Source: Bacilli bacterium
GTDB lineage: Bacteria > Bacillota_I > Bacilli_A > RF39 > UBA660
Assembly (NCBI GenBank): GCA_017510225.1
Contig: JAFWNS010000016.1
Coordinates: 1-48,548 of the forward strand
Reading direction: 5' to 3'
Length of the DNA: 48,548 nucleotides
Every line of letters begins with the position of its first letter. Positions within the stretch are counted from its first letter, which is position 1. This document shows positions 440 to 18,865 of this stretch, in pieces. A model generated the notes under the pieces. That model saw nothing but the letters and a program-made list of their open reading frames with translations. It was not told the DNA's origin and made no database searches. Made by a program: the position numbers and the translations under genes.

Positions 440-1105
440 ATGAGGGAATATACTGTTAAAGCTGGAGATACAATTTATGGTATAAGTAAACAATTTGGAG
501 TATCCGCAATGGATATATATAACTTAAATAATTTAACTAATTCTAATATAAAAGTTGGTCAAGTATTAAAAATACCTACTAATAGTGGAACTAATCCATC
601 TAATATGTTTTATTATACTGTTAAAAAAGGAGATAGTTTGTATTCTATTGCTAGGATTTATAATACTACAGTAAATGAAATTATAAAATTAAATAATTTA
701 AAGAGTACTAATTTATCTATAGGTCAAACTTTAAGAATACCTGAAACTAATGAATCTGTTACTACTATGCCTCCTTCTTTTATTAATTATACTGTTAAAA
801 AAGGAGATAATTTATATAGTATTGCGAAAAACAATAATATTAGTGTTGATACTATAATACAAGATAATGCTTTAAATACTAATAATTTGTTTATTGGACA
901 AGTTTTAAAAATAAGAACTGATAATAGTGTTGTTGAAGAATGTTTTGGTAGTAGTTACAGTCCTACTACTAATACTTATACTGTTAAAAAAGGCGATAGC
1001 CTGTATTCTATTTCTAAGAAATTTAATACTACTGTTAATGATTTAATTAGTAAAAATAATTTAAAAAGTACTAATTTATCTATAGGTCAAATATTAAAGA
1101 TATAG
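440..1105 (+). CDS. Protein of four LysM domains, no signal peptide
   Basis: The 221-residue protein is made of four LysM repeats of about 43 residues, at roughly 3-46, 58-101, 116-158 and 179-221. Each carries the YTVKKGDSLYSIA-like start and a closing IGQxLxIP. LysM binds N-acetylglucosamine polymers such as peptidoglycan. The protein starts directly with the first LysM and has no signal peptide, membrane helix or catalytic domain. The RBS (GAGGTG) is well placed before ATG. It leads a three-gene unit with a 10-base gap to the next gene. Repeats two and four are very similar even at the base level, suggesting recent internal duplication. A spore or intracellular assembly role, or non-Sec export, would explain the missing signal. 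Confidence 0.85.
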   Translation: MREYTVKAGDTIYGISKQFGVSAMDIYNLNNLTNSNIKVGQVLKIPTNSGTNPSNMFYYTVKKGDSLYSIARIYNTTVNEIIKLNNLKSTNLSIGQTLRIPETNESVTTMPPSFINYTVKKGDNLYSIAKNNNISVDTIIQDNALNTNNLFIGQVLKIRTDNSVVEECFGSSYSPTTNTYTVKKGDSLYSISKKFNTTVNDLISKNNLKSTNLSIGQILKI

Positions 1106-1115
1106 AGGTGATTAT

Positions 1116-1514
1116 ATGAAAGATGTATATATAGATGATGAAGTATTAAAGAATGATTCTAGTTATTTAGAGTTTATTAATAATAATCCAGGTTTTGGTT
1201 ATTTAAAAATACGTGCTTCTTCTATTAATGAAGCAATACCTGTTAGTGATATTAATATAAGAGTTAGTAAAGTAATTGGTAATAATAATGTTATTTTTTA
1301 TGAAGGAAAAACAGATAATTCTGGAATGATTAATGATATAGTACTTCCTGCTCCTAGAGCTATTTCTAATGATGAAGAGGTACCTAAATTTACAGAATAT
1401 AAATTAGAAGCTATAAAAGGAAATATGAGGCAAGAATATACTATATCTATTTGTTGTTCTATAACTATTATTCAATATATTAATGTAATACCTAGTATTG
1501 GAGATGTTTCTTAA
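1116..1514 (+). CDS. Transthyretin-like/carboxypeptidase-regulatory-like protein
   Basis: This 132-residue protein has no signal peptide. The core (about 28-110) reads like a beta-sandwich: GYLKIRAS, then a proposed IPVSDINIRVSK strand, the GKTDNSGM turn and an LPAP motif. The pattern, in which a value is followed by a D-x-S/N-G turn, is typical of transthyretin-like or carboxypeptidase-regulatory-like domains. From memory, similar domains occur in clostridial proteins encoded next to peptidoglycan-binding proteins. The RBS is GAGGTG. Its stop codon overlaps the next start by one base (TAATG at 1512-1516), so the two genes are translationally coupled. It probably serves as an accessory or spacer for the downstream hydrolase-like protein; that role is inferred. 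Confidence 0.5.
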   Translation: MKDVYIDDEVLKNDSSYLEFINNNPGFGYLKIRASSINEAIPVSDINIRVSKVIGNNNVIFYEGKTDNSGMINDIVLPAPRAISNDEEVPKFTEYKLEAIKGNMRQEYTISICCSITIIQYINVIPSIGDVS

Positions 1515-2857
1515 TGGCAATTAAATATCCTGTTATACCTGAAGAAATAACTGTTCATTTAGGTAAACCAGATGAAGCAGCATCTAATATTACTGTTCCA
1601 TTTGTAGATTATATTTCTAATGTTGCTTCTAGTGAACTATACCCTACTTGGCCTACTAATTCTTTAAAAGCTAATATATTAGCTATTGTATCTTTTGCAA
1701 TGAATAGAATTTATAATGAATGGTATCATACTAAAGGTTATAGTTTTGATATAACATCTAGTCCTATATATGATCAAACTTATATACCTAATAGAAGTAT
1801 TTATGAAAATATTAATAATATAGTCACTGATGCTTTTAATGATTATGTATATAAGGAAGGTCAAATACAACCATATTTTACAAGATATTGTGATGGTAGA
1901 AAAACTACTTGTAATGGGCTTTCACAATGGGGTACTGTTACTTTAGCTAATCAAGGTAAGAATCCATTACAAATACTTAAAAATTATTATGGTAATGATG
2001 TTAATATTAAATATAATGCCCCTATAGGAGGATCTACTGTTAGTTATCCTGGTTATGAAGTTGGACTTGGAGATGTTGGTAATCCTGTTAGAGCAATCCA
2101 AAGAGATTTAAAAAGAATTAAATTAAATTATCCTGCTATACCTACTATTACTGGAGAAGATGGTGCTTATGATTCTTCTACTGAAGATGCTGTTAAAAAG
2201 TTTCAAGAAATATTTTCTCTACCTATAACTGGTATAGTAGATAAAGCAACTTGGTATAGAATTAAATATATTTATAATAGTGTTAAAAAACTATCTGATA
2301 TTTATTCTGAAGGATTATCTCCTGAAGAAGCAGATTTTTCATTTAAAGATGTTGTTAAGTATGGAGATACTGGTATAGAAGTAGAATTTATTCATTATTA
2401 TTTAGGAGCTATTGCTTTTTTAGATAATGATATACCTAATTTAAAAACTAATTCTGTATATAATGATAATACTAAAACTATGGTATTGGCTTTTCAAAAT
2501 AAATATGGATTACCTGCTACTGGAGAAGTAACTTATACTGATTGGAATCTATTAAAAACTACTTATGATAAATTATTAAAAACTATACCTAGTGAGTATA
2601 GTGAATATGCAAATTATTTATATCCAGGATATTTTTTAAGTAAAGGTATGAATAATAGTGATGTATTAAGATTACAAAGATTTTTACTTAAAATATGTAA
2701 ATATGATAAATCTATACCAGGAGTTAGAGTTAATGGAGTATTTGATGATTTAACAGAAAGCTCTATTAGAAAAATACAAAATGATTATAATATTATAGAA
2801 ACTGGTTTAGTAGGACCTCTCTCTTGGGAAAAGATAGTAGAACTTTCTAAAAGATAA
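1514..2857 (+). CDS. SpoIID-like domain plus three peptidoglycan-binding domains
   Basis: Residues about 12-165 resemble the SpoIID/LytB fold. They show VDYISNVASSE with a possible catalytic Glu at position 41, then WPTNSLKAN and, further on, GLSQWGTVTLANQG and ILKNYYG. SpoIID is a lytic transglycosylase that cuts denuded glycan strands during engulfment. Three PG_binding_1-type domains follow (about 182-260, 275-355 and 370-447), each ending with a G-x-V/L-x-x-x-x-W element. The protein has 447 residues and no signal peptide. It is last in the unit with the LysM and transthyretin-like genes, and a shared terminator follows. A cell-wall or spore-wall remodelling role is likely; the substrate and export route are unknown. 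Confidence 0.65.
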   Translation: MAIKYPVIPEEITVHLGKPDEAASNITVPFVDYISNVASSELYPTWPTNSLKANILAIVSFAMNRIYNEWYHTKGYSFDITSSPIYDQTYIPNRSIYENINNIVTDAFNDYVYKEGQIQPYFTRYCDGRKTTCNGLSQWGTVTLANQGKNPLQILKNYYGNDVNIKYNAPIGGSTVSYPGYEVGLGDVGNPVRAIQRDLKRIKLNYPAIPTITGEDGAYDSSTEDAVKKFQEIFSLPITGIVDKATWYRIKYIYNSVKKLSDIYSEGLSPEEADFSFKDVVKYGDTGIEVEFIHYYLGAIAFLDNDIPNLKTNSVYNDNTKTMVLAFQNKYGLPATGEVTYTDWNLLKTTYDKLLKTIPSEYSEYANYLYPGYFLSKGMNNSDVLRLQRFLLKICKYDKSIPGVRVNGVFDDLTESSIRKIQNDYNIIETGLVGPLSWEKIVELSKR

Positions 2858-7972: not shown

Positions 7973-7996
7973 AAAAAAGGAAGTTATTTACTTCCT
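7973..7996 (-). terminator. Terminator of the 214-residue protein gene
   Basis: AGGAAGT (7978-7984) pairs with ACTTCCT (7990-7996); on the minus strand a T run follows (7978-7973). It overlaps the stop codon of the gene at 7984-8628. Confidence 0.7.
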
Positions 7997-8628
7997 ATAG
8001 TATTTTCTTTTTCATTAGTATCATCTTGTTTATTAAACATTTCCTTTAATTCATTATTTTTCTCTCTTTGACTTCTAACATATTCTGTATGTTCTTTCAT
8101 TGCTTCTTCATATGTTTTATCACTTATACCATAAGCTATTGGCATTAATCTCTCAATAAGATCTTCTTTATAAGGTTCTTCTCTAAAATGTCTAGCCATT
8201 GAAAAGCCCATAAGTTCATTTAGTTTTCTGAAAGCTTTAAAAGTATCTATAATCTTTCCAAAAAACTTATGTGGTTTTGTTTCCTCTTTTGTACGTGGAA
8301 GAATATCTTTATCTATATTCTTTCCTTCTTTAAGAACTTTTATTCTATCTATATATTCTTTATAATTTCCTTCCTCTAAAAACTTTTTACCTATATTACT
8401 AGTAATCATATTATTAAAGTTTTCTCTTAAATCAATATACTCTTTATACTCATCAGATTCATGATCTATATTATCTAATATATCTTCCATTTCTATACTA
8501 TCTTTATCTAAAGATTCTAATATATTAATTATATTATCATAATTATTAGTTCTAAATAAATCTTTTATTCTAATAGTAGATTGTTTTATTCTTTCATTAT
8601 AATCAATAAGTCTTTTATTTTTTTCCAT
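7984..8628 (-). CDS. Unknown 214-residue cytosolic helical protein
   Basis: I do not recognise this protein. It is rich in Lys, Glu, Asp and Asn, predicted mostly helical, with no signal peptide and no clear membrane segment. A basic patch HKFFGKIIDTFKAFRKLNEL near residue 122-141 is amphipathic and is followed by LMGFSMARHF. The C-terminal 40 residues are charged and coil-like. The RBS GGAGAG is well placed. It lies downstream of the tandem DUF1292/coiled-coil genes but behind their terminator and a separate TATAAT box (8654-8659), so it may be regulated apart from them. Its size does not match the other long members, yet its position suggests a shared role. Confidence 0.6.
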   Translation of the reverse strand: MEKNKRLIDYNERIKQSTIRIKDLFRTNNYDNIINILESLDKDSIEMEDILDNIDHESDEYKEYIDLRENFNNMITSNIGKKFLEEGNYKEYIDRIKVLKEGKNIDKDILPRTKEETKPHKFFGKIIDTFKAFRKLNELMGFSMARHFREEPYKEDLIERLMPIAYGISDKTYEEAMKEHTEYVRSQREKNNELKEMFNKQDDTNEKENTIGSK

Positions 8629-8683: not shown

Positions 8684-8701
8684 GAACGTATTTCTACATT
8701 C
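8684..8701 (-). terminator. Terminator after 495-residue coiled-coil gene
   Basis: On the minus strand GAATGTA, loop GAAA, then TACGTTC forms a 7-bp stem with one G-U pair, followed by seven T residues (8683-8677). It lies at the 3' end of the gene at 8694-10181. Confidence 0.65.
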
Positions 8702-10181
8702 TTCTTCCGCTTGTTATTTCAAAATCATCAGTATCATCATTTTCTTCAGCAAGCATACCCTCTAATTCAGAACCAGATTCTGGTTGATTAGGATTTATAT
8801 GAACTTCTTCATCATCATACTCTTCACTATCATATTCATTATCATATTCTTCACTGTCATATTCATCATCATAAGGTATTTCATCATCTTCAAACATTTC
8901 AGGTTTTTCTGTTAAATATTCTCTATAAGTTTGCTCAAATCTATCAATTAATGTATGTGAATATCTATTTCTTAATTCGTCACCTTTTTCTCCATGAAGA
9001 TCATTAATAACTTGTTTGAATTCTTCTGGTGGTAACATCCAAATCATTGCTTGAACATCTACTGCATCATCAAGATCTACCCAAGATGATCTAACCCATC
9101 CTGATAATTTCTTAACTGTATTCTTAACTAAAGATACTCCTGCAGTAAGAACATTGAATCCAAATACTCCTTCTTTTAAATCTTTATGGAATTCTTTACC
9201 TAATTTAATATTTCTAGCTTTATATTTTTTATCTGATTTTTTATCTATTGGTACAATTCTCTTCATTTGATCTAATATTTCTTCTGTTGATCTAATCTCT
9301 CTTCTTTCTTCTTGTTCATTTTGTTCGTTTGGAGTATTGTCATTCTCATTCTCAACTTCATCTTCATTCTCATTATTATTTTCGCTTCCATATTGATCTT
9401 CTGCTTCTATCTGATTTATTTTTTCTTGATCTTGCTTGATTTCTTCATTTATTTTTTCATATTCAGCTTCCAATCTAGCTCTTTCTTCTTCTGGTGTTTC
9501 TTCTTCATCTTCACTATTAGATGAATCCCCAGAATCTGATGTAGATGAATTTTCTACTGCTTCTTTATTCTTTTCTTCTTCATCTTCTTCTACTTCTTCA
9601 TTATCTGCTGAATCATTATTATCTTCATCTGTAGAATTATCACCAGGAGTTTCTACAACTTCTTCTTTATTATCATTTTCTTTTGCTTTTTCTTCTTCTT
9701 TTTCATTTTCTATTTCTGTTTGATCTTCTTTTTTGTTTTCTAATTCAGCCATAATACTTTCAGGAACTATTTTATTTATTTCATCTAATAGTTCTTGTTG
9801 ATACTTTTTGCAGCCTTCAATTATATTAGCATAATCTTCTTTTAAATAGTCAGTTGGAGCATTTTCTTTTTCTTTTTTATATTCTTCTATCTTTTTATTA
9901 TATTCTTCTATTATATTAAATTTATCTTCAACTTCTTTTTGTATTTTCTTAGCATTTTCTATATCATTATTTATTTCATCACTAACATCATACAAATGAC
10001 TATTTTGTATTATTTCACTACTAACGTAGTCTCCTCCTACTTCACGCTCACCAACTTCATTATCATTAGGTCTATTTGCAATTATTTCATCATTAGCTGC
10101 AATTTGATCCTCAATTTTCTTTAATGATTCTTCCAAATTAGCTATATAATTATCGAATTCTTGATTATAATCTTCTAACAT
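8694..10181 (-). CDS. Acidic coiled-coil protein, second member of tandem pair
   Basis: The 495-residue protein is not a recognised family. Residues 1-150 form a coiled coil that matches the N-terminus of the gene at 10525-13179, including the shared KENAPTDYLK and KYQQELLDEIN segments and VPESIMAEL. Residues about 155-290 are extremely Glu/Asp/Asn-rich low complexity. A hydrophobic helix (VFGFNVLTAGVSLVKNTV) lies near 335-352, followed by a folded stretch with LPPEEFKQVINDL. The tail has DSEEYD repeats and ends with MLAEENDDTDDFEI, which resembles the tail of the same neighbour. It follows a DUF1292-like gene after 50 bases, RBS GGAG. A scaffold or envelope role is a guess. Confidence 0.7.
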   Translation of the reverse strand: MLEDYNQEFDNYIANLEESLKKIEDQIAANDEIIANRPNDNEVGEREVGGDYVSSEIIQNSHLYDVSDEINNDIENAKKIQKEVEDKFNIIEEYNKKIEEYKKEKENAPTDYLKEDYANIIEGCKKYQQELLDEINKIVPESIMAELENKKEDQTEIENEKEEEKAKENDNKEEVVETPGDNSTDEDNNDSADNEEVEEDEEEKNKEAVENSSTSDSGDSSNSEDEEETPEEERARLEAEYEKINEEIKQDQEKINQIEAEDQYGSENNNENEDEVENENDNTPNEQNEQEERREIRSTEEILDQMKRIVPIDKKSDKKYKARNIKLGKEFHKDLKEGVFGFNVLTAGVSLVKNTVKKLSGWVRSSWVDLDDAVDVQAMIWMLPPEEFKQVINDLHGEKGDELRNRYSHTLIDRFEQTYREYLTEKPEMFEDDEIPYDDEYDSEEYDNEYDSEEYDDEEVHINPNQPESGSELEGMLAEENDDTDDFEITSGRRM

Positions 10182-10231
10182 TTTATCACTCCATTTGTCA
10201 ATTTTTTATATTATATCACATTTGATATATT

Positions 10232-10510
10232 TTAACCATATTTTTCTTGTATTTGACTTACAATATCTTTTACAAGTTCCATTTCTTTTGGATCAGTTAT
10301 ATCTTCGAACTTTTCAGGTCCAAATAATGGATCATATTTTGATACATATATATTTAATTCTCCATTAGGACCAGTTGTATTATCAGTATAACCAATAATA
10401 GGTTTATCTACGTCTCCTCCATCATATGTAAATAATAAATCACATACAGTAGGTTTTCCATCAATTATAAGTTCTAATTTTTCATCTTGAATATCTTCAA
10501 ATTCACTCAT
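10232..10510 (-). CDS. DUF1292-like small protein, copy 2
   Basis: A 92-residue acidic protein with a beta-rich core: LELIIDGKPTVCDLLFTYDG, then IIGYTDN, NIYVSKYDP, and a C-terminal helix with EMELVKDIVSQI. This follows the pattern of the DUF1292 (YrzB-like) family, in which a LFTF strand and a late EW/EM-x-x-V-x-x-x-I helix recur. It is clearly related to the protein at 13182-13463 over the whole length. Each copy lies just upstream of one long coiled-coil gene, here with 50 bases between. DUF1292 has no known biochemical role that I can cite. RBS GGAGG precedes ATG. Confidence 0.65.
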   Translation of the reverse strand: MSEFEDIQDEKLELIIDGKPTVCDLLFTYDGGDVDKPIIGYTDNTTGPNGELNIYVSKYDPLFGPEKFEDITDPKEMELVKDIVSQIQEKYG

Positions 10511-10524
10511 ATATATCCTCCTAA

Positions 10525-13179
10525 TTACATAGCTGCTTGATATTCATAGTCATCAGTCTTTTCATCATCTTCATCAAGCATAGTATTCATTTCTTTTTTC
10601 TTCTCTCGTTCTGCTTTTTTTCTAGCAGATTCTTCTAGTATATTTTCAAGGTCTCCATTAGTAACTGCTATAATACTCTCTAACTCTTCTCTTTCTTCTT
10701 CTGTTAAATCTTCTATGTTTTTACCTTTCGTTATTTCTTGAACCCTTCTATTATTATCTCCCATCACAGTTGCATTTAAGAATGCCATAATTGTAGGAAA
10801 AATAACAGGTTGTATATCAGGTGCTGCTGTAAGTAAAGTTTGAATCTCTGGAATTTTAGCAACTGTAGTTTCTGTTAATTGTGTACCAATTTTATATACT
10901 GATCTAAAACTACTAACCATATCACTCATGAATGAAGTCGGATTATTTACAATGTCCTGTAACACTTGTATTTGTGGATCATAGTCAAATCGTCCTTTAT
11001 AGAATTTATCAGCTCTCATAAATTTTGTTATAATATCTGGTATTTGTGATGTAATAGTTTTTGTTGTTTGATCTACAATATGTTGTACGTGGCCAAATAT
11101 GCCATCTGCTGGAAGATTCTTAGAATAGTTTGTTATACCGTGATTTATTCTGTATAGTGTTTCAACAGTATCATGAGCTCCTCCAGGACCAGTATCTGCT
11201 AGTCTATATCCTGAACTACCTATTGGGTTCTTAGGATCAAATGCATTACCATACTCAACTACACCCTGATGATTTACATTATCATATTGTAATTGTTGTT
11301 CTACTTTAGGAGCTAATTTGTTTGGATCAGTAATATTTTGTATTTGTCCTCCTTGAGCTCTAACGTTTTTAGCAACAGCTTCATTATATTGATTACCAGC
11401 ATTTATATCGTGATTTCCTCTATTTATTTCACCTTTTTGTGCAATGTATTCTGATTCAACTCGTTTTGCTTCCATCATATTACTTACATTTTGGTAAATA
11501 GATACACCAATAGCTACTTCTGTACCTATTGCCATAAAGTATCTAAGTAGTGGATCATTTCTGAAATCTAACATTTCTGGCATAACTTTATACTTATAAC
11601 TTCCAGATTCTGCCATTCCAAAAATTGTTCTTTTCTGTTTAGTATTCTCTTGTTTATACATTTCATTTTCAACGAAAACTTTGATAGCTCCTAAATCATC
11701 GCCTGCATCAATGGCTTTATTTAGTTTTTTGATTTTTGCTTCCATTTCGTTATTAAACTCATCAACAGCAGCATCTTTTAAATTAGTTCTTTTACTAAAT
11801 ATTTTTCCTTGTTGATTTTGCTGAGATTTTATTGCTTTAGAAATTTCAGCTAATGAATGCATGCCATCTCCATGCATATTCCTATCTAATTGTCTTCTGT
11901 CCTCCAATAGTTTTTTTACTTTTTCTGTTGCTCCTTCAGACAATTCTTTTATTTCTGCTTCTATTTGTTTACGTTCCTGTGGGTCTTTTGTTTCTTCTAA
12001 TTTTACTTTTAAATCTTCTATTTTATCATATCTACCTATTATATCAGTATATAAGGATGAAATTTCTAATCTAAGTGGAGCGTTTTTCTTCTTTTCTATA
12101 TATTCTGATAACTTCTGCATTACTAATGGCATAATCGGCTGAAAAGACCTCATGCTATTTGCTTCTGAACCAGTTAACTCCTTATATAAAATTTCCATTT
12201 CTTCATCACTTAAATTATCTAGTTTTTTTGCTATTTCATCATATGTTTTTGCATCAGATGGATGAAAAATTCTTAGAAATTTGTTAATTCCTTTATATGC
12301 AATACTTCCAGCAGTAAATAAAAGTCCAGCTCCTACTCCTGCAACATTATATATAGTATTGTGATGCGATATTAAATCCTTCATAGTATTAGTAACACTC
12401 AAACGTGATTTTTCAACAACATTAGATCGTGTAATAGTGAAATCATATGGTTTTCCATCTTCATCTCTTATTACAGAATTTAGAATTTCATAAGCTGATT
12501 TTCTAACTTTCTTTGCATTAGTTTCAATGTTTTCGTTTTGTTCTGGAGTTACTTTTATTGGTCTTGGTTGTTTTTCAATTTTTACTTCTTCTTCTTTAGG
12601 TTCTTTTACTTCAACACCTAATTCTTTTAATCTATCTTCTATTTCTTTCTTTCTTTTTTCTTTTTCTTCTATACTTCTCTTTAATCTTTCTCTTTCTGGT
12701 TCTTCCTTTACTTCTTCTTTATTTTCTTCTTTTCTATCTTCTTCTACTTTGTTTTCATCTGTTTCTTTTTCATTATTATCTTCTTTGTTTCCTTCTAATC
12801 TTTCATTAATAGCAGCCATTACACTTTCAGGCATTTTTCCATTTATTCTATTTAATAATTCTTTTTGATACTTCTTAAAATCTTCTATTAATTGACCATA
12901 ACCATTTTTTAGATGCTCTGTCGGAGCATTTTCCATACGTTTAGTATAATCTTCTATTTTTCTATTATACTTTTCTATTTCTGCGAAAATATCCCTTATT
13001 TCTTGTTCACTTGCTCTTAGATTTTCTATTTCTTGTCTAAGCGCTTCTGCCTCATTTTCTAACCATTTATTATGGTCTAAATCATCAGATATAGCATTAT
13101 TTGGATTTTCATACTCTTCCAATCTTGCTTCTAATTCTTCTATATACTTTTCTAATTCTTCCGTATATATTCCTAACAT
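10525..13179 (-). CDS. Large coiled-coil membrane protein, first member of tandem pair
   Basis: This 884-residue protein is not recognised. Residues 1-150 are a coiled coil shared with the protein at 8694-10181, with MENAPTEHLK, KKYQKELLNRIN and MPESVMAAI. A Lys/Glu-rich stretch follows to about 210. A hydrophobic helix around 275-297 (VAGVGAGLLFTAGSIAY) and a second around 545-567 (FMAIGTEVAIGVSIY) suggest membrane insertion, with a helical, charged region of about 250 residues between them. The part after 570 has more polar, Gly/Asn-rich sequence than the rest of the window. The C-terminus is acidic and ends MLDEDDEKTDDYEY plus five residues. It starts 2 bases after the stop of the DUF1292-like gene, so coupling is likely. 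RBS GGAG. Confidence 0.7.
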   Translation of the reverse strand: MLGIYTEELEKYIEELEARLEEYENPNNAISDDLDHNKWLENEAEALRQEIENLRASEQEIRDIFAEIEKYNRKIEDYTKRMENAPTEHLKNGYGQLIEDFKKYQKELLNRINGKMPESVMAAINERLEGNKEDNNEKETDENKVEEDRKEENKEEVKEEPERERLKRSIEEKEKRKKEIEDRLKELGVEVKEPKEEEVKIEKQPRPIKVTPEQNENIETNAKKVRKSAYEILNSVIRDEDGKPYDFTITRSNVVEKSRLSVTNTMKDLISHHNTIYNVAGVGAGLLFTAGSIAYKGINKFLRIFHPSDAKTYDEIAKKLDNLSDEEMEILYKELTGSEANSMRSFQPIMPLVMQKLSEYIEKKKNAPLRLEISSLYTDIIGRYDKIEDLKVKLEETKDPQERKQIEAEIKELSEGATEKVKKLLEDRRQLDRNMHGDGMHSLAEISKAIKSQQNQQGKIFSKRTNLKDAAVDEFNNEMEAKIKKLNKAIDAGDDLGAIKVFVENEMYKQENTKQKRTIFGMAESGSYKYKVMPEMLDFRNDPLLRYFMAIGTEVAIGVSIYQNVSNMMEAKRVESEYIAQKGEINRGNHDINAGNQYNEAVAKNVRAQGGQIQNITDPNKLAPKVEQQLQYDNVNHQGVVEYGNAFDPKNPIGSSGYRLADTGPGGAHDTVETLYRINHGITNYSKNLPADGIFGHVQHIVDQTTKTITSQIPDIITKFMRADKFYKGRFDYDPQIQVLQDIVNNPTSFMSDMVSSFRSVYKIGTQLTETTVAKIPEIQTLLTAAPDIQPVIFPTIMAFLNATVMGDNNRRVQEITKGKNIEDLTEEEREELESIIAVTNGDLENILEESARKKAEREKKKEMNTMLDEDDEKTDDYEYQAAM

Positions 13180-13181
13180 AA

Positions 13182-13463
13182 TTATTCTCCTAACTGAACT
13201 GCTTCATCAATTTGTTCTAATACTTCTTGAACTAATTTCATCTCTTCTTCTGTCTTAATATTTTCTAATTGATCATTATCTTTTGATCTATCATATGAAC
13301 CTACATATATATTTTTTCTACCATTAGATCCAAATGATCCATCACTATAACCAACATATAATTTATTAGTATCATCACCCTCAAAAGTAAATAATACATC
13401 GCATTCTACTTCTTTACCATCTTTAATTATTGTAATTTTTTCATCTTTATCCAAAAATTCCAT
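13182..13463 (-). CDS. DUF1292-like small protein, copy 1
   Basis: A 93-residue acidic protein: ITIIKDGKEVECDVLFTFEG, LYVGYSDGSFG, NIYVGSYDR and a final helix EMKLVQEVLEQI. These match the DUF1292 (YrzB-like) pattern and the copy at 10232-10510. I chose the ATG at 13463 because it lies 8 bases after AAAGGAGG; a TTG one codon earlier is less likely. It is the first gene of a four-gene unit, behind the promoter at 13494-13522, and its stop is 2 bases from the start of the 884-residue protein. The tight spacing suggests the two proteins act together. Confidence 0.65.
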   Translation of the reverse strand: MEFLDKDEKITIIKDGKEVECDVLFTFEGDDTNKLYVGYSDGSFGSNGRKNIYVGSYDRSKDNDQLENIKTEEEMKLVQEVLEQIDEAVQLGE

Positions 13464-13525: not shown

Positions 13526-13984
13526 TTAACTGTCAATATTTACATCAATATTTACATTGTTTACATCTTTTGTCTTTATATGTAATTTATATAATGTATT
13601 TTCTTTCTTTTTACCAGCAACTTTTAATTTAACTTCATTCTTACTATTTAATAAATTCTTTTTATCTTTTTCCTTAAATAATTCTAATTTAGTATCATCA
13701 TTACATATAAATCCCATTTTATATTTAACATCTTTTTTAGCGACTTTTTTATTTCTATAATTAATTATTCTAATAACATAATACATTTCATTATTCTTTA
13801 GCTTTTTAGCTTCTACTCTAAAGTCTATATTTAATTTATCTTTTTCTATTGGTACAACAATATCTGCTTTTTCTTTAGTTTTACTACTTACTTTTAAACT
13901 TATTAATTTAATTACTAATCCTAATACTAATATTAATAATAATATAAATATTACTAATAAAACTTTCTTTGGTATCTTTTTCAT
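13526..13984 (-). CDS. Single-pass membrane protein of unknown function (152 residues)
   Basis: An N-terminal basic start (MKKIPKKV) is followed by one membrane helix (about 8-30, IFILLLILVLGLVIKLI). The remaining 120 residues are Lys-rich and predicted beta-rich, probably outside the cell. Repeated beta-strand-like stretches (YYVIRIINYRNKK, LYKLHIKTKD) hint at an Ig-like fold. No catalytic motif is seen. It follows the gene at 13993 by 8 bases with RBS GGAGG and no terminator between, so the two are co-transcribed. Its composition resembles the membrane proteins at 15368 and 15873, and all may belong to one surface function. No family name is justified. Confidence 0.65.
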   Translation of the reverse strand: MKKIPKKVLLVIFILLLILVLGLVIKLISLKVSSKTKEKADIVVPIEKDKLNIDFRVEAKKLKNNEMYYVIRIINYRNKKVAKKDVKYKMGFICNDDTKLELFKEKDKKNLLNSKNEVKLKVAGKKKENTLYKLHIKTKDVNNVNIDVNIDS

Positions 13985-13992
13985 ATATCCTC

Positions 13993-15303
13993 CTACTTAA
14001 TTACCTTATCTATAATATCTTTTATTTTATTCTCTATTTGTTTTTTATTCTCTTTAGGTAAACTACTAGCTAATTTAGATTCTGATACATCGACTCTTAT
14101 CTTCTTAGCTTTAACTATTGTATTATTAAAATTAATAAGTATATTATAAATTCCTGTATTATCTTTTTCTCCATTAAGAGATATATTTATATTCTTTTTA
14201 TATTTTTTCTTATTTACTTTATGTTTACTAATATTTATAGAAACAGTATTTTTTAAACCTCTATCTTTTATGTAAAATACTATCTTCTTTTTATTTTTCT
14301 TTCTAGATAAACTGAAATTACCTATCTTAGTATCTTTTTTATTATAAATATTAATATTTAATCTTTTTTCTTTATTAGAAATATCTCCTCTAAATCTTAT
14401 ATTATTATTTCTATATAATTTAAATTCATTATCTTTATATATTAATTTATATTTATTATACTTGATTTCATACTTATTAGGACTATAAGTAAATCTATCT
14501 GTATATATAGTTATATATAGTTTTTTATCTTTCTTTAAAAAGTTAATATCTTTTACTTTCTTTTTAAAGAAATCTCTATCAAAACCCTTTATTATTTCTT
14601 TAGCTTTTTTATCCTCTTTTAAATCATCTAATGTATCTTTATAAGTTTCATTTAATCTTTTATTATCTAATACTAAAGTTATCTTAGTATAGTTATTATT
14701 CTCTTGCTTAGAAAAATATTTATCATCTAAGTTCTTTATAAAATATTTATTGAAAGTATCTTTTAAATATATTAAATTATTAGTTTCTTTAGTATCACTA
14801 TTTAATGTTTCAAAATATGTATTATTACCATTATTTATATAAGTATCAGTTATATCATTTATATAATAATACTCTGTATTATCTTTTATTAAATATTTAC
14901 CTGTTATTAAATCTTTCTTATTAACAGTACTATTATAATCTATATATAATTCTTTGTTTTTTCTATTAGAAGTGTAATTTATATTAGCTTTTGTATTATT
15001 ATAATTAGTTATTAAATTAGTTATAATTTCATAGTATTTATTATTATATTTTTTATTATCTTCTATCTTACCTGTTGTATTAATACTTAAATTAGATACA
15101 AGAGTAAAATTTTTAAATTCTGATTCAAGTTCTTCTATATTAGAAAATGAACTAGTTAAATTATTGATTGATTCTAAAAATATTCTTTTGGAATTACTTA
15201 AATATAATAGATAAGTACCTAATAATATTACTATAATACTAATTACTATTAATATTTCTATAATCCTTCTATTAATTGGTTTTTTCTTTTTCTTCTTAGC
15301 CAT
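13993..15303 (-). CDS. Single-pass membrane protein of unknown function (436 residues)
   Basis: The N-terminus (MAKKKKKKP) leads into one membrane helix (about 12-37), so the large C-terminal part should face outward. That part is Asn-, Lys- and Tyr-rich, with repeated beta-strand-like segments such as KLYITIYTDRFTY and NIYNKKDTKIGNFSL. It resembles secreted proteins that measure or bind wall material, but I recognise no family. I chose ATG at 15303; the upstream GTG at 15312 overlaps the RBS GGAG. A TATAAT (15331-15336) with TCGACA 17 bases upstream gives a separate promoter. The 152-residue membrane protein gene follows. Confidence 0.65.
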   Translation of the reverse strand: MAKKKKKKPINRRIIEILIVISIIVILLGTYLLYLSNSKRIFLESINNLTSSFSNIEELESEFKNFTLVSNLSINTTGKIEDNKKYNNKYYEIITNLITNYNNTKANINYTSNRKNKELYIDYNSTVNKKDLITGKYLIKDNTEYYYINDITDTYINNGNNTYFETLNSDTKETNNLIYLKDTFNKYFIKNLDDKYFSKQENNNYTKITLVLDNKRLNETYKDTLDDLKEDKKAKEIIKGFDRDFFKKKVKDINFLKKDKKLYITIYTDRFTYSPNKYEIKYNKYKLIYKDNEFKLYRNNNIRFRGDISNKEKRLNINIYNKKDTKIGNFSLSRKKNKKKIVFYIKDRGLKNTVSINISKHKVNKKKYKKNINISLNGEKDNTGIYNILINFNNTIVKAKKIRVDVSESKLASSLPKENKKQIENKIKDIIDKVIK

Positions 15304-15330
15304 AATTTTCACTCCTATTATATATACTAA

Positions 15331-15359
15331 ATTATATCAAAAAAAAAGAGATTTGTCGA
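15331..15359 (-). promoter_or_regulatory. Promoter overlapping the preceding terminator
   Basis: On the minus strand TCGACA (15359-15354) and TATAAT (15336-15331) are 17 bases apart. The -35 box lies in the loop of the terminator at 15347-15367, so read-through and initiation compete for the same DNA. Confidence 0.4.
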
Positions 15360-15367
15360 TTATCTCT
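15339..15367 (-). terminator. Terminator of the mraZ-to-15368 unit
   Basis: On the minus strand AGAGAT, a 9-base loop and ATCTCT are followed by about nine T residues. It ends the division-gene transcript directly after the stop codon at 15368. Confidence 0.7.
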
Positions 15368-15871
15368 TTAATTAATATTGGATGTTAAAATAGTTATTTG
15401 ATATATAAAATCTTTAGATAAAATATTCTTATTTGGAGATAGAACATTAAGTTCTAATTCTATTTCATCTCCTGGTTCTATTACTTCTCCTACAATGTCA
15501 TTATATTTTATAGTTACAAGATCTTTTGAGTAATTAGTTCTTTCGATAATATTATCTATTTGAGCAGATAAACTACCAGTATTTTTTATAACTATTATAT
15601 AAGATACTGAGTCTTTATTATTCTTTAGATTTAATGAAAACTTAGCCGTTTTCTTATTATCAGTTATTTCAGAGTTGGTTGTAATATGTTTATTAGAACC
15701 ATTAATAACATTACCTTTTATTATTTTAGTAATATTTACTTCATATTTTTCTTTTGTTTTCTTTACAGAATTATATCTCATAGATAAATATATAAAACCT
15801 ATACCTACAAATACTATAGTTATACTTAAAAGTAATATTATAGTTGTTTCTAGTTTTATTTTTTCTCTCAT
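15368..15871 (-). CDS. Single-pass membrane protein with Ig-like domain (167 residues)
   Basis: After MREKIKLE there is one membrane helix (about 9-30). The outer part (about 45-167) looks beta-rich and has VSYIIVIKNTGSLSAQI and EVIEPGDEIELELNVL. These phrases recall DUF11-like or bacterial Ig-like repeats that shape surface proteins. I chose ATG at 15871, with RBS AGGGGA, starting 1 base after the stop of the previous gene; longer upstream starts lie inside that gene. It is the last gene of the unit that begins with mraZ, so it is presumably co-expressed with division genes. The precise role is unknown. Confidence 0.65.
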   Translation of the reverse strand: MREKIKLETTIILLLSITIVFVGIGFIYLSMRYNSVKKTKEKYEVNITKIIKGNVINGSNKHITTNSEITDNKKTAKFSLNLKNNKDSVSYIIVIKNTGSLSAQIDNIIERTNYSKDLVTIKYNDIVGEVIEPGDEIELELNVLSPNKNILSKDFIYQITILTSNIN

Positions 15872-15872
15872 A

Positions 15873-16709
15873 TTAACACTTCCCCTCTTTAGAACTATTA
15901 TTTTGATAACAGAATGAATATATATCTTTATCAATAGTAAATTTTATATATGCATAAACTTTACTATCTTTTATGTAATACCAGCTATCAGAATCAGGAT
16001 ATAAATTATTATAAGCAGGTATATCACTTATTTTAATATTATTACCATTAATATCTTGATTAACTATATTATTAGATTTTTGATATTTAAGTAATTTATT
16101 ATATATATTATCTGCATATTCTTTTATCTTTTCTTTAGATAATTTTACAGTTTTTTTAGATTTTTTGTTTTTATTATTCAATATATCTTGTGAGTATATA
16201 CTTAAATTTATTAGTATTCTACTTTCTTTAGTATCTTTAAATTTAAATTCTTTACCTTTTGTTTTTAATTTACTTTTCTTTATATTTATTTTTATATTAT
16301 TATTTTTCTTTATAATCTTTTTAGTGCTTTTTACTAATTTATACTTATCATAGATAATAATATTTAAAGACTTAGAAATAGGTTTAGTTTTATTAAATTC
16401 TTTTATAGTATTTTTAAGTACTACTTTATAATTTTTGTTTTTATATTTTATATTACCTATAAATGTAGATTTATCATTTAGACATAATGTAGTTAATACT
16501 TTGTTTTTATCATCTACTACGATAGCAAAGTCTTCTCCACTATCATAGTTAAATTCTATCATAGTTTTATAGTTTTTATATTGTGCAATATTTTCTAATC
16601 CATGTTTTTTTAATTCTTTTGGTAATTCTTTACTTAGTTTATAGCCGCAAAAACCTATAATAATTAGAATTATTACTAATATTTTTAATCCTTCTTTATG
16701 TTTCTTCAT
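15873..16709 (-). CDS. Single-pass membrane protein of unknown function (278 residues)
   Basis: A basic start (MKKHKEGLK) precedes one membrane helix (about 9-26). The rest is Lys/Asn-rich; a strand-rich stretch (IEFNYDSGEDFAIVVDDKNK) with a later helical EYADNIYNKLLK region faintly recalls the outer part of RsgI-type anti-sigma factors. The match is too weak to name it. It ends SKEGKC and has a second Cys in the final strand. It lies 11 bases after the PBP gene and 1 base before the 167-residue gene. In other Bacillota this spot of the cluster holds mraY and murD, which are absent here. Confidence 0.6.
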   Translation of the reverse strand: MKKHKEGLKILVIILIIIGFCGYKLSKELPKELKKHGLENIAQYKNYKTMIEFNYDSGEDFAIVVDDKNKVLTTLCLNDKSTFIGNIKYKNKNYKVVLKNTIKEFNKTKPISKSLNIIIYDKYKLVKSTKKIIKKNNNIKINIKKSKLKTKGKEFKFKDTKESRILINLSIYSQDILNNKNKKSKKTVKLSKEKIKEYADNIYNKLLKYQKSNNIVNQDINGNNIKISDIPAYNNLYPDSDSWYYIKDSKVYAYIKFTIDKDIYSFCYQNNSSKEGKC

Positions 16710-16720
16710 ATAAAATACCT

Positions 16721-18865
16721 CTAACTAGAAAATTTAGGTTTTAATGTTAGTTTAATTTCCATACCTTTAGTTATTTCAGTATTAGGACTAATACTTTGAT
16801 TAGTAACATAACCTACTCCATCTAATTTAACTTTTATACCTAGTAATTCTAATATATCTTTTGCTACTTTAGAAGATAGTCCTTTTACATTAGGTACTTT
16901 TTGATGGGAATCGTTTGTTATTAAATAGACTATATCTTTAGTAGTAATAGTTTTCTTAGCACTTGGATATTGTTTAATTACTTTATTTCCTTTACCAATT
17001 ACTTGGTATTTAATACCATTACTATTTAATATATTTTGAACTGTATCTAGTTTTTTATTTACTAAACTAGGTAATTTATAATCTTTTACTTCTATTCCTT
17101 TTGCAGGTTTATCATGACCATAGTATTTAGATACATTATTAACTATATCTTTAACTGCATTAGATAATGGTGTTTGACTTCCACCTGCTGGTTTTTTAAC
17201 TGAAGCATATATAATTATTTGAGGATTACTCTTTGGGTATATTCCAGAAAATGATGCGATTACATTATGTTTCCCTTCTTCATATCCTGCACCATGTTTT
17301 TTAGCTATTTGGGCAGTTCCTGTTTTACCAATTAATTCTCCGCTTTCAATTCTAAAACCACTACCTGTATTGCCTAGACCATTAACACAATCATTCATTA
17401 AACTAATCATCTTACTAACAGTCTGTGAAGAAGCAACTCTTTCTATAGTTTTTCTTTTATTTTTTAAAACAACTTCTTTAGTATCTGGATCTACTATTTT
17501 ATCTACTATATATGGTTCTAGTACCATTCCATCATTAGTAAGTGGTGATAGAGCTTTTACATTTTGTATAGGTGTTGTCGTAATACCTTGACCGAATCCA
17601 GCATTATATATTTCTGTTTCATATTTAAAATCTATACTACCTGCATCTTCATATGGTAAAGTTATACCTGTTTTTCTTCCAAAACCTAATCTTTTAAAAT
17701 ATTTTCTTAGCATAATACTACTCATATGGCGATTAATTAAGTTAATAACTCCAACGTTACTACTCATAGCATAACCTTTATCGAAAGTTATATCACCCCA
17801 ACCAGTACGATCCCAGTCACCTATTTCTGTTCCATCTTTAGTTTTATATACTCCTGAGTGATATGTTTCTGAACCATTATAAACACCATTTTCCATAGCT
17901 GCCATATAAGTAAATGTTTTCATAGTTGATCCTGGTTCATATGGAGAAGATACTAAATAATCTAAATAATTTTTCATATCTTTTTTATTTGGATCAAATG
18001 ATGGAGATGTTGAAGTTGCGAGTATTGCACCTGTTTTAGCATCCATTATAGTTATATGAAACCATTCAAATCCATAAGTAGTTTTAGCTGTTTGAATAGC
18101 TTGTTCTACAAAGAATTGTATATTACTATCAATTGTTAAATAGATATCTTTTCCTTGTGTAGCATCTTTTTTATCTACTTTAGTATCAGCTATCTTATAA
18201 CCTTTTAAGTCTTTTTGATAAGTAATATATCCTTCTTCTCCTCGTAATATCTTATCATAATACTTCTCTATACCCATTTCTCCTGTAGTATCTTCATTAT
18301 TGTTATCATCTACTGATGTAGTGGCATATCCAATTGTATATGAAGCAAAATCTCCTTTAGGATAATATCTTTTATAACTTTCTACAAAATCTAATCCTGG
18401 TAGATTTAAATCCATTATTTTATTCTTAGTTATTTCATTTAATCCTCTACCTTTAGAACCAAATTCAACTTGATATACTCCTTCTTTACTTAACTTCTTT
18501 AATATATCCATTTTAGACATTCCAAGTATAGGAGCTAGTGCTTCTGCAGTTTCTTCTTTATTAACTACATGTTGTGGTTTTTTCTTATTAGTAGTTCTTT
18601 TAGGATCTAAATAAGCAATTAATTTATAGGAAGCAACATTTTGAGCTAAAGCATCTTTGTTTTTAGAATAAATACTTCCTCTTTCAGATGGTATTATTTC
18701 TTTTTTAGTAGTTCTCTGACTAGCTAATTTCTTTAAATTGATTCCATCTATATTAGTAGATAAACCTAATTGTAATAATCTTAAAATCATTATAGCAAAC
18801 AAAAAAAGAGAAAATAGTATAACAATCTTAGAATATTTTATATTATTTCTCTTTTTCTTTCCCAT
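16721..18865 (-). CDS. pbpB: Class B penicillin-binding protein with PASTA domains
   Basis: The 714-residue division transpeptidase crosslinks septal peptidoglycan. It has an N-terminal membrane helix (about 11-31), a dimerisation domain, and a transpeptidase domain with S313-T-M-K, S368-S-N and K514-T-G. Two PASTA domains (about 590-650 and 655-714) follow, with PSLVNKKLDTVQNIL and PNVKGLSSKVAKDIL. This plan matches PBP2B/SpoVD of B. subtilis. It follows ftsL, as expected for partners of the divisome, with 14 bases between. The RBS (GGACGTG) is distant from ATG. It may serve the SEDS protein FtsW encoded at 35149. Confidence 0.93.
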   Translation of the reverse strand: MGKKKRNNIKYSKIVILFSLFLFAIMILRLLQLGLSTNIDGINLKKLASQRTTKKEIIPSERGSIYSKNKDALAQNVASYKLIAYLDPKRTTNKKKPQHVVNKEETAEALAPILGMSKMDILKKLSKEGVYQVEFGSKGRGLNEITKNKIMDLNLPGLDFVESYKRYYPKGDFASYTIGYATTSVDDNNNEDTTGEMGIEKYYDKILRGEEGYITYQKDLKGYKIADTKVDKKDATQGKDIYLTIDSNIQFFVEQAIQTAKTTYGFEWFHITIMDAKTGAILATSTSPSFDPNKKDMKNYLDYLVSSPYEPGSTMKTFTYMAAMENGVYNGSETYHSGVYKTKDGTEIGDWDRTGWGDITFDKGYAMSSNVGVINLINRHMSSIMLRKYFKRLGFGRKTGITLPYEDAGSIDFKYETEIYNAGFGQGITTTPIQNVKALSPLTNDGMVLEPYIVDKIVDPDTKEVVLKNKRKTIERVASSQTVSKMISLMNDCVNGLGNTGSGFRIESGELIGKTGTAQIAKKHGAGYEEGKHNVIASFSGIYPKSNPQIIIYASVKKPAGGSQTPLSNAVKDIVNNVSKYYGHDKPAKGIEVKDYKLPSLVNKKLDTVQNILNSNGIKYQVIGKGNKVIKQYPSAKKTITTKDIVYLITNDSHQKVPNVKGLSSKVAKDILELLGIKVKLDGVGYVTNQSISPNTEITKGMEIKLTLKPKFSS

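What the first reader, a model, noticed from the sequence alone, without database searches (positions are those of the whole stretch)
8694..13463. Tandem two-gene module: DUF1292-like protein plus long coiled-coil membrane protein
Two neighbouring cassettes each pair a DUF1292-like protein (93 and 92 residues) with a long protein (884 and 495 residues). The small proteins match along their whole length, and the long proteins share their N-terminal coiled coil and, more loosely, the central hydrophobic helix. This is a duplicated unit, transcribed as one, with a 2-base junction in the first cassette. No known system has this plan to my knowledge. The pair may form an envelope or membrane scaffold in which the small protein caps or gates the coiled coil.
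Basis: partly seen in the sequence, partly recalled or inferred. Interest (0 to 1): 0.7.

Follow-up and report, generated by a model that had tools for sequence, protein, structure and literature searches.

The report
DUF1292 protein paired with helical giant
In one family of uncultured gut bacteria, a small protein of unknown function is always encoded directly in front of a long helical protein of a previously undescribed family, usually at the end of a cell-wall and division gene cluster, so the two most likely work as a dedicated pair in building or dividing the cell envelope.

Summary
The two cassettes are real. The pair, not the tandem, is the conserved feature. The 884-aa protein belongs to an undescribed family (no match in Pfam, NCBIfam, PHROGs or the PDB) found only within one family of gut Bacilli. 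In all 41 distinct loci checked, a DUF1292-type gene lies directly upstream (-65 to +23 bases). The reverse also holds. The paired-type DUF1292 profile separates from housekeeping YrzB (102 bits and above versus 96.5 and below), and all 24 genomes of 291 with a paired type also carry a long gene beside it. In most loci the pair ends an operon with ftsI and up to four membrane-anchored proteins. In about five unrelated places it stands alone, so the two genes travel together. Distance-matrix comparison ties DUF1292 to the long protein's core rather than to its N-terminal coiled coil. 'Membrane protein' is poorly supported: the hydrophobic helices are far weaker than real neighbouring spans. The second cassette is a truncated paralogue. 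Short forms recur and always keep the first core segment and the DUF1292 gene. Best reading: a dedicated subunit or chaperone plus cytoplasmic helical scaffold, serving envelope or division functions. Co-occurrence with type VII secretion is striking but confounded by ancestry.

The parts
13182..13463 (-). DUF1292-type partner 1 (93 aa; predicted four-strand sheet plus C-terminal helix)
   Evidence: Pfam PF06949 32.9 bits vs cut-off 24; paired-type profile 132.7 bits; fold from readthrough model of the homologue
10525..13179 (-). long helical protein 1 (884 aa): N-terminal helical region aa 1-142, linker, family core aa ~223-875 with beta hairpin (aa 513-526) and weakly hydrophobic helices (aa ~270-295, 544-562, 789-807)
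   Evidence: family profile E 9.8e-160; alignment A3; AlphaFold model pLDDT 61
10232..10510 (-). DUF1292-type partner 2 (92 aa)
   Evidence: paired-type profile 119 bits; whole-length match to partner 1
8694..10181 (-). long protein 2 (495 aa), truncated paralogue: same N-terminal region plus first ~135 positions of the core, then acidic tail
   Evidence: blast E 4.5e-21 to aa 24-161 of protein 1; core profile E 1.5e-10
7978..7996 (.). terminator-like hairpin with T tail, probable end of the transcript
13526..13984 (-). operon neighbour g190: 152 aa, N-terminal membrane anchor, extracytoplasmic domain
   Evidence: directly upstream of DUF1292 in about three quarters of loci; membrane segment -14.9 kcal/mol
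13993..15312 (-). operon neighbour g455: 439 aa, N-terminal membrane anchor
15368..15871 (-). operon neighbour g178: ~167 aa, N-terminal membrane anchor
15873..16709 (-). operon neighbour g290: 278 aa, N-terminal membrane anchor
16721..18865 (-). ftsI-type penicillin-binding protein with PASTA domains
   Evidence: Pfam PF00905 1.7e-65, PF03717, PF03793
18880..20593 (-). ftsL/divIC-like, mraW (rsmH), mraZ: start of the division and cell-wall cluster
   Evidence: Pfam hits PF04977, PF01795, PF02381

Best explanation
The cassette encodes a dedicated two-protein complex. A DUF1292 paralogue, split off from housekeeping YrzB, is made just before the long protein (gap usually under 25 bases). It binds the first segment of that protein's core, as a permanent subunit or an assembly chaperone. 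The long protein is a cytoplasmic, mostly helical scaffold: variable N-terminal coiled coils and linkers, and a conserved core that may touch the membrane from inside. In its usual place it is the cytoplasmic end of an operon with FtsI and up to four membrane-anchored extracytoplasmic proteins, so it most likely serves envelope synthesis or division. Shown: obligate pairing in both directions, movement as a unit, correlated divergence, operon context, all-helical prediction. Inferred: physical binding, its site, scaffold or chaperone role, envelope function.
For: DUF1292 directly upstream in 41 of 41 distinct loci, counting one frameshift-split long gene. Paired-type DUF1292 never found without the long gene: 24 of 24 genomes among 291, two of them cut by contig ends and one with a divergent short form. 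The pair stays together in about five unrelated settings (rpsB/rplT, miaA, tdk, two-component and ABC-transporter neighbourhoods) and in duplicated copies. Seven short forms of the long protein keep the first core segment and the DUF1292 gene. DUF1292 distances follow the core (r 0.78 and 0.73) better than the adjacent membrane gene (0.55) or the N-terminal coiled coil (0.46), and the first core segment stays the best partner after outliers are dropped. FtsI operon in most loci. Helical models.
Against: No direct evidence of binding: no complex prediction could be run, and the joined model's continuous helix across the linker is an artefact of joining. The pair exists without the ftsI operon in genera g44, g51, g123 and most of g164, and the operon exists without the pair in G053 contig 4, so the envelope role is not obligatory. 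Correlated divergence also reflects shared ancestry of 21 related loci. No fold match gives a functional clue.
Confidence: 0.45

Rival explanations
1. The long protein is a substrate or accessory component of a type VII secretion system, and the DUF1292 protein is its targeting chaperone, doing the job of the small helical partners of LXG proteins.
For: 27 of 28 module genomes have EssC over the TIGR03928 cut-off against 11 of 36 genomes without the module (Fisher p 3e-8; by genus 12/12 vs 11/36, p 2e-5). A particular EssC subtype with EsaB and two small helical proteins occurs in 24 of the 28 and in none of the 36.
Against: Confounded: on a tree of seven housekeeping genes the sampled module genomes (g1, g14, g89, g114) fall together, so this may be one shared origin. 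Module genomes of g44 and g123 lack that EssC subtype, and G172 has the module but no EssC. The module is never next to essC in the loci read. No LXG or WXG match in 31 members. The small partner is beta-rich, not a helical hairpin.
Confidence: 0.15
2. A purely cytoskeletal or organelle-forming coiled-coil protein, comparable to the large structural proteins of mycoplasma attachment organelles, with DUF1292 regulating its polymerisation.
For: Long helices, acidic and proline-rich repeats, large length variation (367-2297 aa).
Against: No sequence or fold match; short forms keep little coiled coil; the conserved part is the core, not the repeats.
Confidence: 0.2
3. Phage-derived tape-measure-like protein with its chaperone.
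For: Helical, long, hydrophobic patches; the best predicted-structure matches include tape-measure proteins at weak scores (E about 1e-3, TM about 0.1).
Against: No relative in 2.9 million viral contigs, no shared PHROG, no phage genes nearby, chromosomal division-cluster context, TM-scores meaningless.
Confidence: 0.03
4. The small gene is a translational or operon hitch-hiker, with no functional tie to the long protein.
For: Genes at the end of one operon can stay adjacent by descent.
Against: Adjacency persists after movement to unrelated loci and in duplicates, while the other operon genes separate; correlated divergence exceeds that with the adjacent g190.
Confidence: 0.07

Closest known systems
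DUF1292 / YrzB family (Pfam PF06949), B. subtilis YrzB of the yrzL(reoM)-yrrK(ruvX)-yrzB cluster (cluster layout from own knowledge)
   Same: Same domain; partner 1 passes Pfam's cut-off. The genome also has a housekeeping copy beside RuvX- and IreB-like genes (L019).
   Different: Paired type forms a separate high-scoring group with an NGRKNIY motif, sits outside the ruvX cluster, and is bound to the long gene.
LXG effectors with Lap partners of type VIIb secretion (PMC9600955)
   Same: Small gene just upstream of a long protein with a helical N-terminus; essC present in nearly all module genomes.
   Different: No LXG homology, C-terminal part conserved rather than a variable toxin, small partner not a helical hairpin, not located at essC.
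ZapG-like (PF06295)
   Same: Weak hit of the 495-aa protein (E 6e-4, 20.3 bits).
   Different: Below the curated cut-off (33.5), only 1 of 31 family members scanned, coiled-coil stretch only.

Membership tests
DUF1292 (PF06949) | profile match over curated cut-off | tested here: met
   Partner 1 32.9 bits vs 24; partner 2 below Pfam's reporting level but 119 bits on the lineage profile
YrzB housekeeping orthologue | located with ruvX and ireB/reoM | tested here: not met
   RuvX- and IreB-like genes lie beside another DUF1292 gene in this genome, G000:C35
LXG effector of type VII secretion | LXG domain at N-terminus | tested here: not met
   no LXG or WXG family at E <= 0.01 in 31 members scanned against Pfam
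LXG effector of type VII secretion | small partner is a helical hairpin (Lap) | tested here: not met
   partner predicted as four strands plus one helix
LXG effector of type VII secretion | encoded in a genome with EssC | tested here: met
   27 of 28 module genomes
LXG effector of type VII secretion | secreted through EssC | not testable with these tools
   needs culture and genetics
ZapG-like (PF06295) | profile match over cut-off | tested here: not met
   20.3 bits vs 33.5, one member only
Phage tape-measure protein | relatives in viral genomes | tested here: not met
   none in viral contigs; no shared PHROG
Known fold of the core | match to a solved structure | tested here: inconclusive
   best Z 10.9 to helical bundles, within chance range for helical models; domain not searched alone
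Integral membrane protein | hydrophobic span comparable to real membrane segments | tested here: not met
   medians -2.4, -0.4 and +0.15 kcal/mol against -6 to -20 for neighbouring anchors; reentrant or amphipathic contact not excluded

The most novel reading that the evidence does not exclude
The pair is a new class of type VII secretion partner and substrate or scaffold, linked to an EssC subtype found only in module-bearing genomes of this lineage, with a beta-fold DUF1292 protein in place of the usual helical partners and a tie to FtsI-driven envelope synthesis.
Probability: 0.12. Interest if true: 0.75.

Novelty: new variant of a known kind. Interest (0 to 1): 0.45.

Why it matters
DUF1292 proteins occur across Bacillota and, as far as the library searched here shows, have no known function or partner; a fixed partner in one lineage gives the first handle on what the domain does (bind a helical protein). 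It also defines a new protein family inside the division cluster of poorly known gut Bacilli, which makes the question of how these cells build and divide their envelope testable.

Tried and rejected
First genome-contig scan with the single 884-aa sequence found nothing; an alignment was needed. Sequence search of solved structures with both families: nothing significant. Fold searches with both models, including BFVD: no usable match; helical bundles dominate the lists and the small domain was not tested alone. Phage origin rejected. ZapG and SMC hits rejected as coiled-coil bias. Type VII link tested and kept only as a rival after the tree showed the sampled module genomes grouping together. 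The tree of small proteins is poorly resolved, so the age of the tandem duplication was not settled. A test whether other DUF1292 paralogues also pair with low-complexity proteins found relatives of the 402-aa neighbour only within the genus. Literature on DUF1292: six papers mention it, each with one occurrence in the search; the one opened (PMC8528326) did not hold the term in its main text, and the other five were not read.

Full report
What is there. The window is contig 3 of a small, incomplete metagenome-assembled genome (0.85 Mb, 64% complete). On the minus strand a gene series runs mraZ, mraW, ftsL/divIC-like, ftsI with PASTA domains, then four proteins of 278, ~167-188, 439 and 152 aa, each with an N-terminal membrane anchor, then DUF1292-1, the 884-aa protein, DUF1292-2, the 495-aa protein and a 214-aa protein, ending at a terminator-like hairpin at 7978-7996. 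The lineage reading (uncultured gut Bacilli of the RF39 kind) is an inference from the titles of related records and was not tested.

Observation. All coordinates and sizes are right. Partner 1 passes Pfam DUF1292; partner 2 does so only through lineage profiles. The N-termini of the long proteins share 43% identity over residues 24-161, far beyond shuffles that keep heptad blocks (z 12.6) or heptad registers (z 21). The cores of the two long proteins cannot be aligned pairwise above chance, but the 495-aa protein matches the family profile at 1.5e-10. It is therefore a truncated paralogue, closer to the family type in that segment than the 884-aa protein is.

Family and distribution. A first search of relatives found homologous genes in four other genomes; an alignment profile found 30 of 386 genomes of the same taxonomic family, in 12 of 150 genera. 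Searches of 395 class-level and 295 phylum-level genomes found none outside the family. Scanning 84,980 species genomes with the alignment gave 29 loci, viral contigs none. No Pfam, NCBIfam, PHROG or PDB family matches meaningfully.

Pairing. In 41 distinct loci the gene directly upstream, on the same strand, is a DUF1292 gene; the one apparent exception is a long gene split by a frameshift, with DUF1292 ahead of its first half. The gap is -65 to +23 bases and mostly 8-18 (start codons were chosen mechanically), which suggests coupled translation. The loci were found by the long protein's core, not by DUF1292, so this is not built in. Conversely a paired-type DUF1292 profile over 291 genomes gives hits of 102 bits and above in 24 genomes and then drops to 96.5 and below, where ruvX-linked housekeeping copies lie. 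The gap is narrow and was chosen after seeing the scores. All 24 genomes have a long gene next to the paired type: 21 by profile, one as a divergent 611-aa short form (G016), and two running off the contig with recognisable N-termini (G215, G110).

A unit that moves. In about three quarters of loci the order is ftsI, g290, g178, g455, g190, DUF1292, long, with one or another of the middle genes missing in some. In genera g44, g51, g123 and most of g164 the pair sits elsewhere: near miaA, tdk, rpsB/rplT, a two-component system or an ABC transporter. In G053 the ftsI operon stands on another contig without the pair. G046 has two separate pairs, one with a decayed second core behind it. The tandem in the window is unique among the loci seen. 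The pair is thus the conserved unit, and the operon is its usual but not necessary home.

Anatomy. The conserved core (about 590 positions) holds motifs such as KKYxASNIKVxxxFKxELxSGNxLYNI, GLHGFSEDMKA, FGKRSTGKKYYSPL and LDYRDDPF; the N-terminal part varies from about 200 to 1700 residues with coiled coils and repeats. AlphaFold gives an all-helical protein with one hairpin (pLDDT 61 for the window protein; 74 for relative L092 read together with its DUF1292); the DUF1292 part is four strands and a helix. No solved fold matches beyond generic helical bundles. The hydrophobic segments are weak: medians -2.4, -0.4 and +0.15 kcal/mol against -6 to -20 for the neighbouring anchors, and the short forms of genus g89 replace the first with more polar residues. 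Membrane spanning is not supported; contact is possible.

Where the partner binds. Short forms (window copy 2, three g89 species, G043, G353, G016) keep the first segment of the core and the DUF1292 gene, while losing much or all of the rest. In 21 loci DUF1292 distances correlate with the first core segment (0.78) and the rest of the core (0.73) more than with the adjacent g190 (0.55) or the N-terminal coiled coil (0.46); with g455 and g178 held constant the values are 0.64, 0.55, 0.23 and 0.17. Dropping outliers lowers the first core segment to 0.43-0.59 but it stays first. This points to the core, not to a cap on the coiled coil. It remains indirect.

Type VII secretion. EssC over its cut-off occurs in 27 of 28 module genomes and 11 of 36 others. 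A subtype of EssC, with an EsaB-like gene and two small helical genes, occurs in 24 of 28 and none of the 36. A tree of seven housekeeping genes puts the six sampled module genomes together, with weak internal support, so much of this may be one ancestral event. Module genomes of g44 and g123 have other EssC types, and G172 has none. The link is a lead, not a finding.

Judgement. An obligate, undescribed gene pair with a new protein family, most likely a cytoplasmic complex tied to envelope synthesis or division. It counts as a new variant of a known kind (a small dedicated partner with a large scaffold or client), because no new mechanism has been shown; the long family itself is new. Interest is moderate: lineage-restricted and of unknown function, but it gives DUF1292 its first fixed partner.

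Noticed in passing
G000:C30 (L203 2722-8035) and 23 other module genomes: EssC subtype (start MIVRLIKKxKIYNFTLPT) with an EsaB-like gene and two ~65-85 aa helical genes, without obvious EssA/EssB/YueB beside it; often next to rplM/rpsI. May be an unnamed type VII variant.
   Followed up: partly
window 7984-8628: 214-aa protein at the end of the transcript with no family match; absent from the same place in genus relatives.
   Followed up: no
L018 1626-3113 (G000:C35): Another DUF1292 paralogue directly upstream of a 402-aa acidic, low-complexity protein with a C-terminal coiled coil; relatives of the 402-aa protein found only within the genus.
   Followed up: partly
L016 15253-17070 (G053:C10): A further DUF1292-like gene directly upstream of a 509-aa protein with acidic EENSSDEETPVEEE repeats, a few kb from the module.
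   Followed up: no
L017 2008-7186 (G046:C74): Long protein whose core is followed by a second, frame-broken core: decayed tandem duplicate.
   Followed up: partly
window 13526-16709: Four fast-evolving membrane-anchored extracytoplasmic proteins behind ftsI, without known family; the 439-aa one has distant relatives in 72 of 386 family genomes.
   Followed up: partly
window 440-2857: LysM-repeat protein (221 aa) and a 447-aa protein with peptidoglycan-binding and SpoIID-like domains.
   Followed up: no
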